Assembly (NCBI GenBank): GCA_021372825.1
Contig: JAJFTR010000023.1
Span: 1 to 50,728, forward strand
Direction: 5' to 3'
Source: Actinomycetes bacterium
Lineage (GTDB): Bacteria > Actinomycetota > Coriobacteriia > Anaerosomatales > Anaerosomataceae
Length of the DNA: 50,728 bases
A program made the position numbers and the translations under genes. Below the pieces are notes generated by a model that was not told the DNA's origin, searched no databases, and was given only the letters and a program-made list of their open reading frames with translations. Below, piece by piece: positions 21,606 through 31,325 of the stretch; the first letter of the stretch is position 1; the number at the start of each line of letters is the position of its first letter.

Positions 21606-22313
21606 TTACATGACGTCATCGAACGCACGCGTGAGGGCGCGGTGCAGCATCGATCGCTTCAGGGCGTTCGTGAGCTCGGTGAGCTCGTTGAGCGCCTCAA
21701 GCAGCTTCTGGCGGGTCTCTGGTGTCCTGTGGAGAAACGACGGCATCAACACCTGTGAGAAGAAGGTGGCTTCTCGCTCGGCGAACGTCTCATACATGCG
21801 CAGATGCCGAGGCTCGATACCGAACTTCCGAAGATCCCAGCATGCATGAGCGATTGCGACATCGGGAGCTGGAAGCTCATCTCCATGCTCGCCTGCGACG
21901 AAGGCGACGAGCCCATAGTCTGCCAGCTCGCGCAAGAAAGCGACAGGCAAGCCCAAGGTGTCCGGAGCCGAGGAGAGCGGGACGGTCTCGGCATTCTCCA
22001 AAGGAAGACGGACCGCCTCGGCGCGCGATACGACGGGTTCAAGATCGGCAGGCACACGCCCCTTGTCAAGCTCCTTTAGCTTCTCGCGGATCACGGCAAG
22101 GGGCATGTAGTGGTCGCGCTGAAGCTTGAGCACAAGCTCGAGACGCGCGATGTCCTGCGGGTGGAACTTGCGATACCCACCGGATGTCCGTTCGGGCGAG
22201 ACGAGTCCCTCGTCCTCCAGGAAACGGACCTTCGAGATCGTGAGGTCGGGGTACTCCGGCTTGAGTTGCTCGACCACCTCGCCGATGGTCATGGACTCAT
22301 GCTCCGCGGCCAT
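21606..22313 (-). CDS. MerR-family regulator, FtsR-like
   Basis: 235 residues. N-terminal MerR winged helix: MTIGEVVEQLKPEYPDLTIS, VRFLEDEGLVSPERTSGGYR, then QDIARLELVLKLQRDHYMPL. The C-terminal half is helical with no cysteine metal site. The combination with an adjacent FHA gene matches the actinobacterial garA-ftsR pair, where FtsR activates ftsZ. Start ATG 22313 overlaps the FHA gene by 17 bases, pointing to coupled translation. FtsR identity is inferred from order and sequence type. Confidence 0.85.
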   Translation of the reverse strand: MAAEHESMTIGEVVEQLKPEYPDLTISKVRFLEDEGLVSPERTSGGYRKFHPQDIARLELVLKLQRDHYMPLAVIREKLKELDKGRVPADLEPVVSRAEAVRLPLENAETVPLSSAPDTLGLPVAFLRELADYGLVAFVAGEHGDELPAPDVAIAHACWDLRKFGIEPRHLRMYETFAEREATFFSQVLMPSFLHRTPETRQKLLEALNELTELTNALKRSMLHRALTRAFDDVM

Positions 22314-22761
22314 GTTGAACGCCTCCTCCTTCGAGGAAGACCATCTCGAAGCGACCCACCTGGACAGTATCCCCGCTGCGCAGAGACGCCTTGTCTACCC
22401 GCATGCCGTTCACGTAGGTCCCATTGAGGGACCCCACGTCCTCGATCGTCACTCCGTCCGCAGAGCTGTCAAGGATCGCATGCGCGCGTGACACGGTGAC
22501 ATCGTTCAAGAAGATATCGCTTTCTGGGTCACGGCCGATCGTGAGGACCGGCTGGTCGAGATAGAAACGCTCCCCCACTTCGACGCCCTTGCGCACCACG
22601 AGCATCGGGACATCGGATGATTCGAACTCCGTGTCGACCGTCGGCATTTCGACAGTGAGGGGTTCGAATGACGCGGTGGTTCCGTGAAGGCGCGCACCAC
22701 AGGTGGGGCACTCACGAGCATCCGGGGTGACCGCCGCACCACACTCAGGGCACATGTCCAT
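22297..22761 (-). CDS. FHA-domain protein with zinc ribbon, GarA-like
   Basis: 154 residues. Zinc ribbon CPECG...CPTCG (residues about 3-24), a linker with a TVEMPTVDTEF stretch rich in possible phospho-acceptor threonines, and an FHA domain (about 55-145): LTIGRDPESDIFLND, VSRAHAIL, GSLNGTYVNG. GarA of mycobacteria is phosphorylated on N-terminal threonines by PknB/PknG and then folds on its own FHA domain. The zinc ribbon is extra. ATG 22761 is chosen because GGAGG lies 9 bases upstream. Confidence 0.88.
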   Translation of the reverse strand: MDMCPECGAAVTPDARECPTCGARLHGTTASFEPLTVEMPTVDTEFESSDVPMLVVRKGVEVGERFYLDQPVLTIGRDPESDIFLNDVTVSRAHAILDSSADGVTIEDVGSLNGTYVNGMRVDKASLRSGDTVQVGRFEMVFLEGGGVQHGRGA

Positions 22762-22796
22762 TGCCGACAACCTCCGTCCCTCTCCAGAAGAAGGAC

Positions 22797-23057
22797 TCAG
22801 CTCAACAGCCCGAAGTCCCTTCGCTTGAAGGACTGCGCGATCTGCTCTTCGAGTACGGTCACGACCTCCGGATTCTCGAGCACGTGCGCGAGCTTCTCCT
22901 CGTTAAGACGGTTCTTCACGTACGGGTCTTTGAGCGCGTCCGTGAGCTTGCGACCGTTACGGACCTCCCGGATCACGTACTCCACGACACGTTCCTCCAC
23001 CGCATCGATGGCCATTTCGTCGAGAAACGCCTGGATCTTCTCAGCGAGCGTTGCCAC
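22797..23057 (-). CDS. Small conserved-looking protein, unknown
   Basis: 86 residues, helical, charged: MATLAEKIQAFLDEMAIDAV and later NEEKLAHVLENPEVVTVLEE. No known motif. Start GTG 23057 with GAGGAGG 4 bases upstream. It lies between the FHA gene and the RsiG-like gene with short gaps and likely shares their transcript. Confidence 0.7.
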   Translation of the reverse strand: MATLAEKIQAFLDEMAIDAVEERVVEYVIREVRNGRKLTDALKDPYVKNRLNEEKLAHVLENPEVVTVLEEQIAQSFKRRDFGLLS

Positions 23058-23081: not shown

Positions 23082-23420
23082 TCATGACGTAGCCGGACCT
23101 TCTTCTTGCTCGTCATCATCCTCGGTGTCGATGGTAACATCCACTCGAGAGACACCACGCAGGTCGCTCGCCAGTATCTCGATCAAGCGCTCGATGTCGT
23201 GACCAGACACGACATCGCCTCCCGAGTCATGCTGCTCTTTCAGACGCCGTACGAGTTCCGCGCGCAGGATGTCGATCTTGCCGTGCAGCACGCGACGCCG
23301 ATAGCTCACGCGTTGCTCTTCGGCATAGAGTTCGTCCAGGAGCGAACGGAGGTCCTCGACGGACTTCTCCTCCAGGTTGAGGAGGGCGTCATCGCTCGAG
23401 TGCTTGTTCTCCTCGTCCAT
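23082..23420 (-). CDS. RsiG-like anti-sigma/c-di-GMP-binding protein
   Basis: 112 residues, start ATG 23420 with GGGAGGAG upstream. Residues 22-60 form the helix-hairpin of the RsiG family, including LLDELYAEEQRVSYRRRVLH. It carries E35-x3-S39-x2-R42-x3-H46-x3-D50, which is the c-di-GMP motif E(X)3S(X)2R(X)3Q(X)3D with Gln replaced by His. In Streptomyces, RsiG with c-di-GMP holds sigma WhiG; deep-branching forms with one motif act as dimers. The acidic tail (DTEDDDEQEEG) is less conserved. No sigma gene is in view. Confidence 0.72.
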   Translation of the reverse strand: MDEENKHSSDDALLNLEEKSVEDLRSLLDELYAEEQRVSYRRRVLHGKIDILRAELVRRLKEQHDSGGDVVSGHDIERLIEILASDLRGVSRVDVTIDTEDDDEQEEGPATS

Positions 23421-23500: not shown

Positions 23501-24295
23501 TCACCTCGACCGTGCGGGTCCGAGGGATCTCGAGATGCTGAACGTTTCAGCAAACACGTCGGCCCGGCGCTTCTCGGCCAGGCTCAGCGCAGCTGGCTCC
23601 AGCGCCACTCCCAGAGTGGTGCTCACCGCGCGCGCCACCGCCTCGACGATGCGCTCGATCGCCGGCGCGCTGCCCAGAGCATCGGCCAGCGTCACTGTCA
23701 CACGGCGGAGTTCGCCGGCCGCGTCTGAATCCAGGTGGAACACATCCACCTCTGCCGTCACGTCACGTGTCCGCACGAAAGAGCCGTGCTGCAAGACCGT
23801 CTCCCGATCCCACACCTGAGCGCTTCCTGAGAGCTTGGCCGCCCCAAGCGACAGGTCGGCGTTCGTCGCGTGCAAGTAGCACGCGGCGGCATGCGGTGTC
23901 CCTCTCGGACGCGCGGTGAGCTCAGCGGGTACTCCGAGGTCACGGTACGTTTCCGCGAGCGCAGCGCACAGGTAGCGGTAACTCGCCGACACCCCTCGCG
24001 GAACCCCATCGGCCAGAGAGGCGACGATCGAGTACGTGAGCTCGTCGTCGTGAAGTACCCCCCTGCCGCCCGTCGGGCGCCGCACGATATCGAATCCACG
24101 CCTCTCACAGGCCTCGCGGTCCACGTCAGCGATCTGCTGGAAACGGCCGAGAGAGACCGTGGGGACTCTCCACTGGTACAAGCGCAGTGTGGGAGGCGCC
24201 TCACCGTCGGCCACCGATGTCAGAACGGCCTTGTCGATGCCCATGTTCAGAGCGCCATCGACCCGGTCTTGGATGATCACACGCCAGGTACGCAC
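23501..24295 (-). CDS. Lipoate-protein ligase family (LplA/LipM-like)
   Basis: About 264 residues, biotin/lipoate A/B transferase fold. RRPTGGRGVLHDDELTYS matches the RRxxGG substrate loop, and AKLSGSAQVW holds the conserved lysine. It could attach lipoate, or transfer octanoate as LipM does, to GcvH. The protein ends without a clear LplA C-terminal domain, so octanoyltransferase is a real alternative. Start GTG 24295 lies 6 bases after the gcvPB stop; an overlapping GTG at 24331 lacks a ribosome site. Confidence 0.8.
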   Translation of the reverse strand: MRTWRVIIQDRVDGALNMGIDKAVLTSVADGEAPPTLRLYQWRVPTVSLGRFQQIADVDREACERRGFDIVRRPTGGRGVLHDDELTYSIVASLADGVPRGVSASYRYLCAALAETYRDLGVPAELTARPRGTPHAAACYLHATNADLSLGAAKLSGSAQVWDRETVLQHGSFVRTRDVTAEVDVFHLDSDAAGELRRVTVTLADALGSAPAIERIVEAVARAVSTTLGVALEPAALSLAEKRRADVFAETFSISRSLGPARSR

Positions 24296-24300
24296 GGGCC

Positions 24301-25788
24301 TCAGAGCGCTCCGTCTCTCATCGGCTTCCACGCAAGGTCCGGCTCTCGCGCCGCGCGCGCCTCATCAAGACGCCGCACAGGAGTCGAGTATGGGGCGCCG
24401 TGCAGCATCTCTGGATCGCTCTTCGCCTCTTCCGCGATCGCGAGCATCACGTCTGCGAACCGGTCGAGTGTCTCAAGGCTCTCGGTCTCGGTAGGCTCGA
24501 TCATCATCGCTTCGTGAACGATGAGCGGGAAGTAGACCGTGGGCGGGTGGATCCCATAGTCGAGCAGCCGTTTGGCGATGTCCAAGGTGCGGACGCCATG
24601 CTCCTTGCGCTGACGCTCAGCCGAAAGCACGAACTCGTGCATGCAGCGCCGGTCGTAGGGAAGCTCGTACTCGCCGCGCAGACGCTGCGCGAGGTAGTTC
24701 GCCGAGAGCACCGCCTGCTCGGACACGTCCTTGAGCCCGTCACCGCCGAGCGCGCGGATGTAGCTGTACGCCCGGACAAGCACACCGACGTTCCCAAGGA
24801 ACGACCGCACGCGGCCGATCGTCTTCTCTGGGGTGTGCAGGTGATACTCGCCCTCTCCATCGCGCACCACGACAGGAGAAGGCAAGAACTCCGCCAACGC
24901 AGGCGCGACGCACACAGGTCCCGCTCCAGGACCGCCGCCGCCATGGGGAGTCGCAAAGGTCTTGTGCAGGTTGATGTGCATGACGTCGAAGCCGAGGTCG
25001 CCCGGACGCGCATGTCCCATGATCGCGTTGAGGTTCGCACCATCGCAATACGCAAGTGCCCCCGCCTCATGCACAAGCTGGGTGATCGCACAGATGTTCT
25101 CGTCAAAAAGCCCCAAGGTGTTGGGGTTGGTGAGCATGATCGCGGCCACATCTGGTCCCAGCGCGGCTCTCAGTCCGTCCAGGTCCACCCCTCCCCGCGC
25201 GTCGCTGGGCACCTGCGTGACCTCGTAGCCGCACATCGCCACCGTCGCGGGGTTCGTGCCGTGAGCGGAATCCGGGATGATCACGCGCTTACGCGCGTCG
25301 CCCATGGCCACATGATAGGCACGGATCACCATGAGCCCGGTGAGCTCTCCATGCGCCCCGGCAGCGGGCTGGAGAGAGACCGCAGGCAGACCCGACACTT
25401 CGCCGAGAGCAGACTGGAGGTCATACATCAGGTGCAGGAGTCCCTGAACGGTCACTTCGGGCTGGTACGGGTGTGCATCAGCAAAGCCGTCCAACCGACA
25501 GGCCCACTCGTCGATCTTGGGGTTGTACTTCATGGTGCACGACCCGAGCGGGTAGAACCCTGTGTCCACTCCGAAGTTCGCGCTCGCCAGACGCTCGTAG
25601 TGGCGCGCGATCTCGACTTCGGTCACGTGCGGCAACGCCGGCGCCTCGCGGCGGAGCATGCCGCCCAGAGCCGCATCCATGTCTACGTCGGGCACATCCG
25701 GTTCGGGCGGCGTGACACAGCGTGACTCGGGCGTGCCGCTCTCGAAGATCAGCCGGCCCGTCAGAGGGGGTCTAGTGCCCTGGCTCAC
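24301..25788 (-). CDS. gcvPB: Glycine decarboxylase subunit 2
   Basis: PLP-bearing C-terminal half of split P-protein. 495 residues. The PLP lysine lies in [19 protein letters not shown]; the N-terminal [11 protein letters not shown] and [13 protein letters not shown] are typical. Partners are GcvPA, GcvH and GcvT, all directly upstream. Starts GTG 25788 in a 4-base overlap with gcvPA. Converts glycine to CO2 and aminomethyl-lipoyl-GcvH. Confidence 0.97.
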
Positions 25789-30119: not shown

Positions 30120-30470
30120 ATGCGCGTCCGCGAGGCGAAGCTCACCGCACCAGACGACGGCTTCACGATGCTCGAGATCACGTTCGTGGTACTGGTGATT
30201 GGCATCCTCGCCGCGATCGCGCTCGCCGCGTACCACGGCTCCAGCGGACGAGCGCAAGACGCCGCATGCCGAGCGAACCAGCGCGTCTTAGAGTCCGCCA
30301 TACCCATGTACGCGGCGGAGACCTCCGGGACGGTGTACCCCGACACGATCCAAGACCTCGCGCCATACGTCCGCAACGACTGGACGAAGATCGCCATATG
30401 CCCTTCAGACGGGACATCGCTCACCTATGACCCCGTCACACACGACATCTCCTGCCCTAACCACCCCTGA
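30120..30470 (+). CDS. Type IV pilin/pseudopilin-like protein
   Basis: 116 residues. Prepilin signal: short charged leader ending in Gly14, then FTMLEITFVVLVIGILAAIAL, with Phe at +1 and Glu at +5. The C-terminal part is small, with cysteines at 49, 94 and 111. Pilin-like proteins of this size may be minor pilins or secretion pseudopilins. No pilus assembly genes are in the window. The GGDEF-like gene follows after 27 bases. Confidence 0.82.
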   Translation: MRVREAKLTAPDDGFTMLEITFVVLVIGILAAIALAAYHGSSGRAQDAACRANQRVLESAIPMYAAETSGTVYPDTIQDLAPYVRNDWTKIAICPSDGTSLTYDPVTHDISCPNHP

Positions 30471-30497: not shown

Positions 30498-31325
30498 GTG
30501 AAGCACTCTCGGTTCGAGGCGTTGATCATCGCACTCGGAGCGATCGTCATCATCACCCCTGTCCTTCTGGGACCTCCTCTGAACCCTCAATGGCAGGAGC
30601 TGGTCGCGCAAGGGCTGCTTGTCGTCGTACTCGCCTCGGCGGTGCACTGGGGTCGCGATGGAGGATCGCTTGCCGCGGCGGCCGCCATGTTCGCCTACGT
30701 GGTGATCAGGGTCCCCCTCCTCTCGACCGAGGGACTCACGTCGAACACCGTTGGGATGATCCTCACGCGAATGATCACGTTCAGCTTGGTGGGAGTGCTC
30801 GGCGGAGAGCTCTTTGCACGGCTGAAGTACCTGCTGGCGCGGTTGGAAGGCTCAGCCATGCTCGATCACGTCACGAACGTCTACAACCGCAGATACTGCG
30901 CAAGGGCGATCGGGGACGGTATAGGCGGGTTCCAGCGCTACCAAACGCCCTTCTCGGTCGCCCTTGTGAGCCTTTCTCCAGGACTTCTCAACGACCTGCA
31001 CACCGCACGACAGAACACGATGCTCCGTACCGTCGCCTCACGGATCCGCAACGACGTGCGGCTCGTCGATGACATCGGCTACCTCGGTGACGGCCGCTTC
31101 ATGCTCCTGTTCCCTCACACGGACAAATCAGGAGCGCGTGCCGCCTCCGACCGGGTGTGCGCGACTGTGAGAGAAGCGCTTGGAGCGCGCGACCAATCCG
31201 TCGTCACTGTGACGCTTGGGTGCCCTGAGGACATCGACGCCCTGTGTGAGCTCGCACGATCACTCGACCCGGAGGTGGACCTTCCCTTAGACGCCGGTGT
31301 CGACGATGTCGGACAGCGGTCTTGA
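30498..31325 (+). CDS. Membrane protein with degenerate GGDEF domain
   Basis: 275 residues. About four membrane segments in residues 8-105, then a GGDEF-like domain from about 118 (DHVTNVYNRRYCARAI). The signature loop reads YLGDGRFMLLF in place of GGDEF, so diguanylate cyclase activity is probably lost; it may bind c-di-GMP or GTP or only scaffold. Start GTG 30498 has AAGGAGG at 30486-30492. Its last 39 bases overlap the convergent ACT gene. Confidence 0.8.
   Translation: MKHSRFEALIIALGAIVIITPVLLGPPLNPQWQELVAQGLLVVVLASAVHWGRDGGSLAAAAAMFAYVVIRVPLLSTEGLTSNTVGMILTRMITFSLVGVLGGELFARLKYLLARLEGSAMLDHVTNVYNRRYCARAIGDGIGGFQRYQTPFSVALVSLSPGLLNDLHTARQNTMLRTVASRIRNDVRLVDDIGYLGDGRFMLLFPHTDKSGARAASDRVCATVREALGARDQSVVTVTLGCPEDIDALCELARSLDPEVDLPLDAGVDDVGQRS

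What the first reader, a model, noticed from the sequence alone, without database searches (positions are those of the whole stretch)
23082..23420. RsiG-like protein with a His-variant c-di-GMP motif
E35-x3-S39-x2-R42-x3-H46-x3-D50 reproduces the RsiG motif E(X)3S(X)2R(X)3Q(X)3D except His for Gln, in a one-motif protein as in early-branching actinobacteria. If it binds c-di-GMP and a sigma factor outside sporulating lineages, it would extend this switch. It sits with the GarA-like/FtsR-like genes.
Basis: partly seen in the sequence, partly recalled or inferred. Interest (0 to 1): 0.72.

Follow-up and report, generated by a model that had tools for sequence, protein, structure and literature searches.

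The report
Single-motif RsiG anti-sigma in Anaerosomatales
The gene encodes a small protein of a known kind (RsiG) that most likely uses the signal molecule c-di-GMP to hold back a sigma factor (WhiG); in this little-studied order of subsurface bacteria that switch very probably controls the main type IV pilus gene, a role so far proposed only for a distant relative.

Summary
The 112-aa minus-strand ORF carries E35-x3-S39-x2-R42-x3-H46-x3-D50 and scores far above the Pfam RsiG cut-off (65.4 vs 27 bits); its best solved match is Rubrobacter RsiG. The His variant is not new: PNAS 2021 (PMC8325347) reports it as common, and His-bearing Conexibacter RsiG binds c-di-GMP and WhiG. What is added: (1) the organism falls in the order Anaerosomatales (OPB41, Coriobacteriia), a lineage absent from that paper. 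(2) RsiG and a true WhiG co-occur: RsiG in 65/69 genomes of this order and 0/130 of other orders of the class; WhiG over cut-off in 66, all in this order. (3) The motif, always with His, and the gene order rsiG-(p86)-garA-ftsR are conserved, also in Thermoleophilia and Aquicultor. (4) No genome of the order has flagellin, yet a sigma-28-type promoter precedes the major type IV pilin in 30 of 30 loci scanned (background 1 of 3344 windows). In the own genome the exact box occurs once in 1.94 Mb, 60 bp before pilA. Most likely, c-di-GMP-armed RsiG homodimers sequester WhiG and so shut off pilA. A new member of a known kind with a sharp, testable prediction. No binding was tested.

The parts
23082..23420 (-). 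rsiG: single-motif RsiG family protein, 112 aa; predicted long helix 21-65, Gly-containing linker, helix 73-87
23271..23318 (-). codons 35-50, the motif E-x3-S-x2-R-x3-H-x3-D
22797..23057 (-). 86-aa protein without family match, 24 bp downstream of rsiG; conserved neighbour in the order
22297..22770 (-). GarA/OdhI-like protein: zinc ribbon plus FHA domain, 26 bp downstream of the 86-aa gene
21606..22313 (-). FtsR (MerR-type regulator), overlaps the garA-like gene by 17 bp
23501..24331 (-). upstream neighbour conserved across the order, here called lplA (lipoate-ligase-like by inspection; no family search was run on it)

Best explanation
The ORF is an orthologue of the single-motif RsiG anti-sigma factors. 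Two copies pair as an antiparallel coiled coil; [quoted passage not shown] When c-di-GMP falls, WhiG is released and transcribes the major type IV pilin operon from a sigma-28-type promoter. Shown here by computation: family membership, motif conservation, presence and co-distribution of WhiG, WhiG contact residues, c-di-GMP enzymes, absence of flagellin, the promoter at pilA. Inferred from the Rubrobacter and Conexibacter work: homodimerisation, c-di-GMP binding, WhiG sequestration and the direction of control.
For: Family. Motif conservation: 19, 35, 46, 57. WhiG in own genome (G000:C35, 356 bits, cut-off 343): 3, 13, 20. Co-distribution: RsiG in 65/69 genomes of the order and 0/130 of other orders of the class; WhiG over cut-off in 66, all in the order. 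The four genomes without RsiG also lack the adjacent 86-aa gene, and three of them are 64-73% complete, so missing sequence is likely. WhiG R27, N31, K37, G41, R42 align with Rubrobacter WhiG R43, N47, K53, G57, R58, residues that touch RsiG or c-di-GMP; Streptomyces WhiG has Q and H at the first two (48; contacts from PMC8325347). c-di-GMP enzymes: 13 GGDEF domains and 1 EAL domain in own genome. No flagellin in 69/69 (28); no FlgM in own genome. Promoter: TAAA-N14-16-GCCGATAA has 29 hits in 69 genomes against 1 for the reversed pattern, 9 of them before a pilin gene; 30/30 pilin loci have a box of at least 11/12 at 79-104 bp, background 1/3344; the exact box occurs once in the own genome, 60 bp before pilA, between pilC and a prepilin peptidase-like gene, minor-pilin-like genes and pilM (39, 40, 45, 50). 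Predicted fold matches RsiG anatomy.
Against: No binding, dimer or expression data exist for this protein or this order. Rubrobacter D39 (pairs with WhiG R43) is Asn15 here, although most relatives keep Asp. The promoter consensus is shared by all sigma-28-type factors, so WhiG is assigned as its reader because it is the only such factor found. No sigma-28 box was found before rsiG or whiG. Pilins were scanned in the 30 best-matching of 63 genomes, not all.
Confidence: 0.85

Rival explanations
1. It is an RsiG that holds WhiG without needing c-di-GMP, or that senses a different ligand, the motif being kept for the coiled coil or for WhiG contact.
For: Conservation of the motif could reflect WhiG contact as well as ligand contact. 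R. radiotolerans RsiG forms the dimer without ligand (PMC8325347).
Against: All five ligand-contacting positions are conserved across distant lineages, the His version binds c-di-GMP and not c-di-AMP in C. woesei, and all 69 genomes of the order encode GGDEF proteins.
Confidence: 0.07
2. RsiG acts on WhiG, but the main output is not the pilin: other sigma-28 targets (c-di-GMP enzymes, chemotaxis-like or secreted proteins) matter more.
For: Exact boxes in single relatives precede a GGDEF-EAL protein (L077), CheB (L076), a histidine kinase (L067), a Crp-type regulator (L086) and secreted-looking proteins without family match (L068, L074, L075).
Against: Only the pilin box was seen to recur across the order (30/30 loci scanned), and it is the only exact box in the own genome.
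Confidence: 0.06
3. A coiled-coil protein that only resembles RsiG by a chance heptad pattern.
For: The protein is mostly helix and weakly matches unrelated coiled coils.
Against: Pfam E 3.8e-18, residue-level alignment to Rubrobacter RsiG, conserved synteny and strict co-distribution with WhiG.
Confidence: 0.02

Closest known systems
Single-motif RsiG of Conexibacter woesei (Thermoleophilia; PMC8325347)
   Same: Single motif with His in place of Gln; small protein; WhiG partner. Loci of the same class (Solirubrobacter, Thermoleophilaceae and others) also have rsiG followed by garA and ftsR (the C. woesei locus itself was not examined).
   Different: Lineage (Coriobacteriia); an 86-aa gene sits between rsiG and garA in most of the order. 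No biochemistry exists for the present protein.
Single-motif RsiG of Rubrobacter radiotolerans (PDB 7lq2, 7lq3, 7lq4; PMC8325347)
   Same: Motif helix aligns residue for residue; the WhiG contact residues tested are conserved; predicted WhiG target is type IV pili.
   Different: Gln instead of His; in Rubrobacter several pil operons and c-di-GMP enzyme genes carry the promoter, here one exact box at pilA in the own genome.
Twin-motif RsiG of Streptomyces venezuelae (PDB 6pfj)
   Same: Same motif and family (phmmer 2.7e-8), same sigma partner type.
   Different: Two motifs in one chain, monomeric, controls sporulation.

Membership tests
RsiG (PF22802) | Profile match above the curated cut-off | tested here: met
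   65.4 bits against 27, E 3.8e-18
RsiG (PF22802) | E-x3-S-x2-R-x3-[Q/H]-x3-D motif, conserved in homologues | tested here: met
   31/31 sequences in the order sample; 79/80 named loci, L190 has Gly for Glu35; invariant in a 32-sequence alignment across lineages
RsiG, single-motif subtype | One motif in a short chain with one long helix, a Gly-rich linker and a C-terminal arm helix | tested here: met
   112 aa, one motif; AlphaFold2 helices 21-65 (pLDDT about 90) and 73-87 (lower confidence), linker with Gly67, Gly68 and Gly73
RsiG, single-motif subtype | Antiparallel homodimer | not testable with these tools
   Only single chains can be predicted here
RsiG (PF22802) | Binds c-di-GMP | not testable with these tools
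   Needs a binding assay; the His variant binds in C. woesei (PMC8325347)
RsiG (PF22802) | WhiG-type sigma factor in the same genome | tested here: met
   NF004935 WhiG, 356 bits against 343
RsiG (PF22802) | Partner WhiG keeps the residues contacting RsiG and c-di-GMP | tested here: met
   sigma-2 R43, N47, K53, G57, R58 of Rubrobacter all kept; KYVAGR read in 29 of 30 order WhiGs, the other not matched by the pattern used; sigma-4 contacts not checked
RsiG (PF22802) | Binds and inhibits WhiG | not testable with these tools
   Needs co-purification or two-hybrid
FlgM-type anti-sigma | PF04316 match | tested here: not met
   Own genome has no FlgM match and the ORF has no such Pfam hit

The most novel reading that the evidence does not exclude
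In Anaerosomatales the c-di-GMP-RsiG-WhiG switch is the dedicated on/off control of surface pili used to meet insoluble electron acceptors (Parvivirga shows pili-like appendages only with ferrihydrite), and co-expression of rsiG with garA and ftsR ties this decision to 2-oxoglutarate metabolism and cell division. The ancestral job of RsiG-WhiG in Actinomycetota would then be pilus control, later recruited for sporulation.
Probability: 0.2. Interest if true: 0.7.

Novelty: new member of a known kind. Interest (0 to 1): 0.46.

Why it matters
RsiG-WhiG was called the only known sigma/anti-sigma pair targeted by c-di-GMP (PMC8325347). Finding it nearly universal in a third early lineage, in an order without flagellin and with the pilin promoter conserved across it, supports the idea that pilus control was an early function, and predicts how pili are switched in a group whose cultured members are non-motile subsurface bacteria covered with pili-like appendages (PMC9686372).

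Tried and rejected
Flagellar role for the sigma factor: rejected, no flagellin in 69 genomes. FlgM as competing anti-sigma in the own genome: none found. WhiG control of the pilin-like gene in the window (30120): no box, best 8/13. Autoregulation of rsiG or whiG by WhiG: no box, 9/13 and 8/13. Sigma-28 sites within the window at up to 3 mismatches: 7 found against 3.2 expected, none with fewer than 3 mismatches, not followed further. Loss of RsiG in four relatives: not supported, the neighbouring gene is missing too. Comparing the model with PDB folds: not run, because a single long helix would match anything.

Full report
What is there. The minus-strand ORF at 23082-23420 encodes 112 residues and is a member of the Pfam family RsiG (E 3.8e-18, 65.4 bits against a cut-off of 27). 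Its best solved relatives are the Rubrobacter radiotolerans RsiG structures (7lq2, 7lq3, 7lq4) and Streptomyces RsiG (6pfj). The only departure from the textbook motif, His46 for Gln, is not new: Schumacher et al. 2021 (PMC8325347) state that His is frequent at that place in the first motif of twin-motif proteins, and the His-bearing single-motif protein of C. woesei binds c-di-GMP (25 uM alone, 1.7 uM with WhiG) and not c-di-AMP.

Where it is. Named relatives from the genome collection place this gene neighbourhood among 'Coriobacteriia bacterium' and 'Anaerosomatales bacterium' records, that is, the order Anaerosomatales, formerly OPB41, of class Coriobacteriia (PMC9686372). The window's own record is unnamed, so this placement rests on its relatives. 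In 199 genomes of the class, RsiG is in 65 of 69 of the same order and in none of 130 from other orders. WhiG over its cut-off is in 66 genomes, all of the same order. The four genomes of the order without RsiG also lack the adjacent 86-aa gene; three of them are only 64-73% complete and one is 91%. Across the phylum the family is in 248 of 396 sampled genomes. The 2021 survey found it in 134 of 673 actinobacterial genomes; the two samples were drawn differently and are not directly comparable.

The locus. The order GcvPB, lplA-like, rsiG, 86-aa gene, garA-like, ftsR holds from lplA to ftsR in all 30 order loci examined; GcvPB is also found in 28 of them. In 79 of 80 named loci rsiG is followed by garA and ftsR, including Solirubrobacter, Thermoleophilaceae, Candidatus Aquicultor and Candidatus Solincola; the exception, L190, is cut by its contig end. 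The garA-ftsR link across Actinobacteria is known, with the region upstream of garA described as variable (PMC6683498). The 2021 RsiG paper does not mention GarA, and no paper held discusses RsiG together with Coriobacteriia. In the window the gaps are 24 and 26 bp and then a 17-bp overlap, so co-transcription is likely (inference).

The partner. The own genome has one WhiG (G000:C35), beside an XerC/D-type recombinase gene (that gene named by inspection). Its sigma-2 residues R27, N31, K37, G41 and R42 match the Rubrobacter residues that contact RsiG or c-di-GMP (contacts from PMC8325347). The genome has 13 GGDEF domains and one EAL domain.

The target. No genome of the order encodes flagellin, so this flagellar-type sigma factor has another job. 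An exact sigma-28 consensus search over 69 genomes gave 29 sites against 1 for the reversed control, and nine lay before a type IV pilin gene. Choosing pilin loci by protein similarity instead, independently of the promoter, all 30 scanned had a box of at least 11/12 starting 79-104 bp before the start codon, against 1 of 3344 background windows. In the own genome the exact TAAAG-N14-GCCGATA occurs once, ending 60 bp before pilA, in a cluster with pilC, a prepilin peptidase-like gene, minor-pilin-like genes and pilM. This is the target type proposed for Rubrobacter, supported here by conservation across an order.

Mechanism. By analogy with 7lq4, two RsiG chains form an antiparallel coiled coil, bind two c-di-GMP and hold WhiG; a fall in c-di-GMP frees WhiG to transcribe pilA. 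AlphaFold2 gives one confident long helix (21-65), a Gly-containing linker and a less confident helix (73-87), the anatomy of a single-motif RsiG. Dimerisation, ligand binding and inhibition were not tested. Cultured Anaerosomatales are non-motile rods with pili-like appendages, which in Parvivirga appear only with ferrihydrite; a link to this switch is a proposal. The appendages' reported diameter, 0.8-0.9 nm, is thin for type IV pili (my own knowledge), so they may be something else.

Verdict. The added value is the third lineage, the strict pairing with WhiG and the conserved pilin promoter.

Noticed in passing
window 30120-30470 and 30498-31325 (+): A type IV pilin-like gene followed by a membrane protein with a degenerate GGDEF domain (YLGDGRF in place of GG[DE]EF), about 7 kb from rsiG; the pair is conserved in 8 of 9 relatives fetched; the window copy has no sigma-28 box.
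   Followed up: partly
G073:C30:108126-108406 (L090): In a relative, a FlgM-like gene (over the Pfam cut-off) lies directly behind an exact sigma-28 promoter although the order has no flagellin; FlgM matches, mostly weak, occur in 6 of 69 genomes. Some species may have a second anti-sigma for WhiG.
   Followed up: partly
L068, L074, L075: Sigma-28 boxes lie about 220 bp before secreted-looking proteins without any Pfam match in three relatives.
   Followed up: partly
window 22797-23057 (-): An 86-aa protein with no family match sits between rsiG and garA through most of the order and in some other deep lineages.
   Followed up: partly
L066:1722-2234: A NapC/NirT-type multihaem cytochrome gene starts 194 bp downstream of an exact sigma-28 box in one relative.
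   Followed up: no
L190:3001-3306: One relative's RsiG has Gly in place of the motif's Glu35, the only departure seen among 80 named loci.
   Followed up: no
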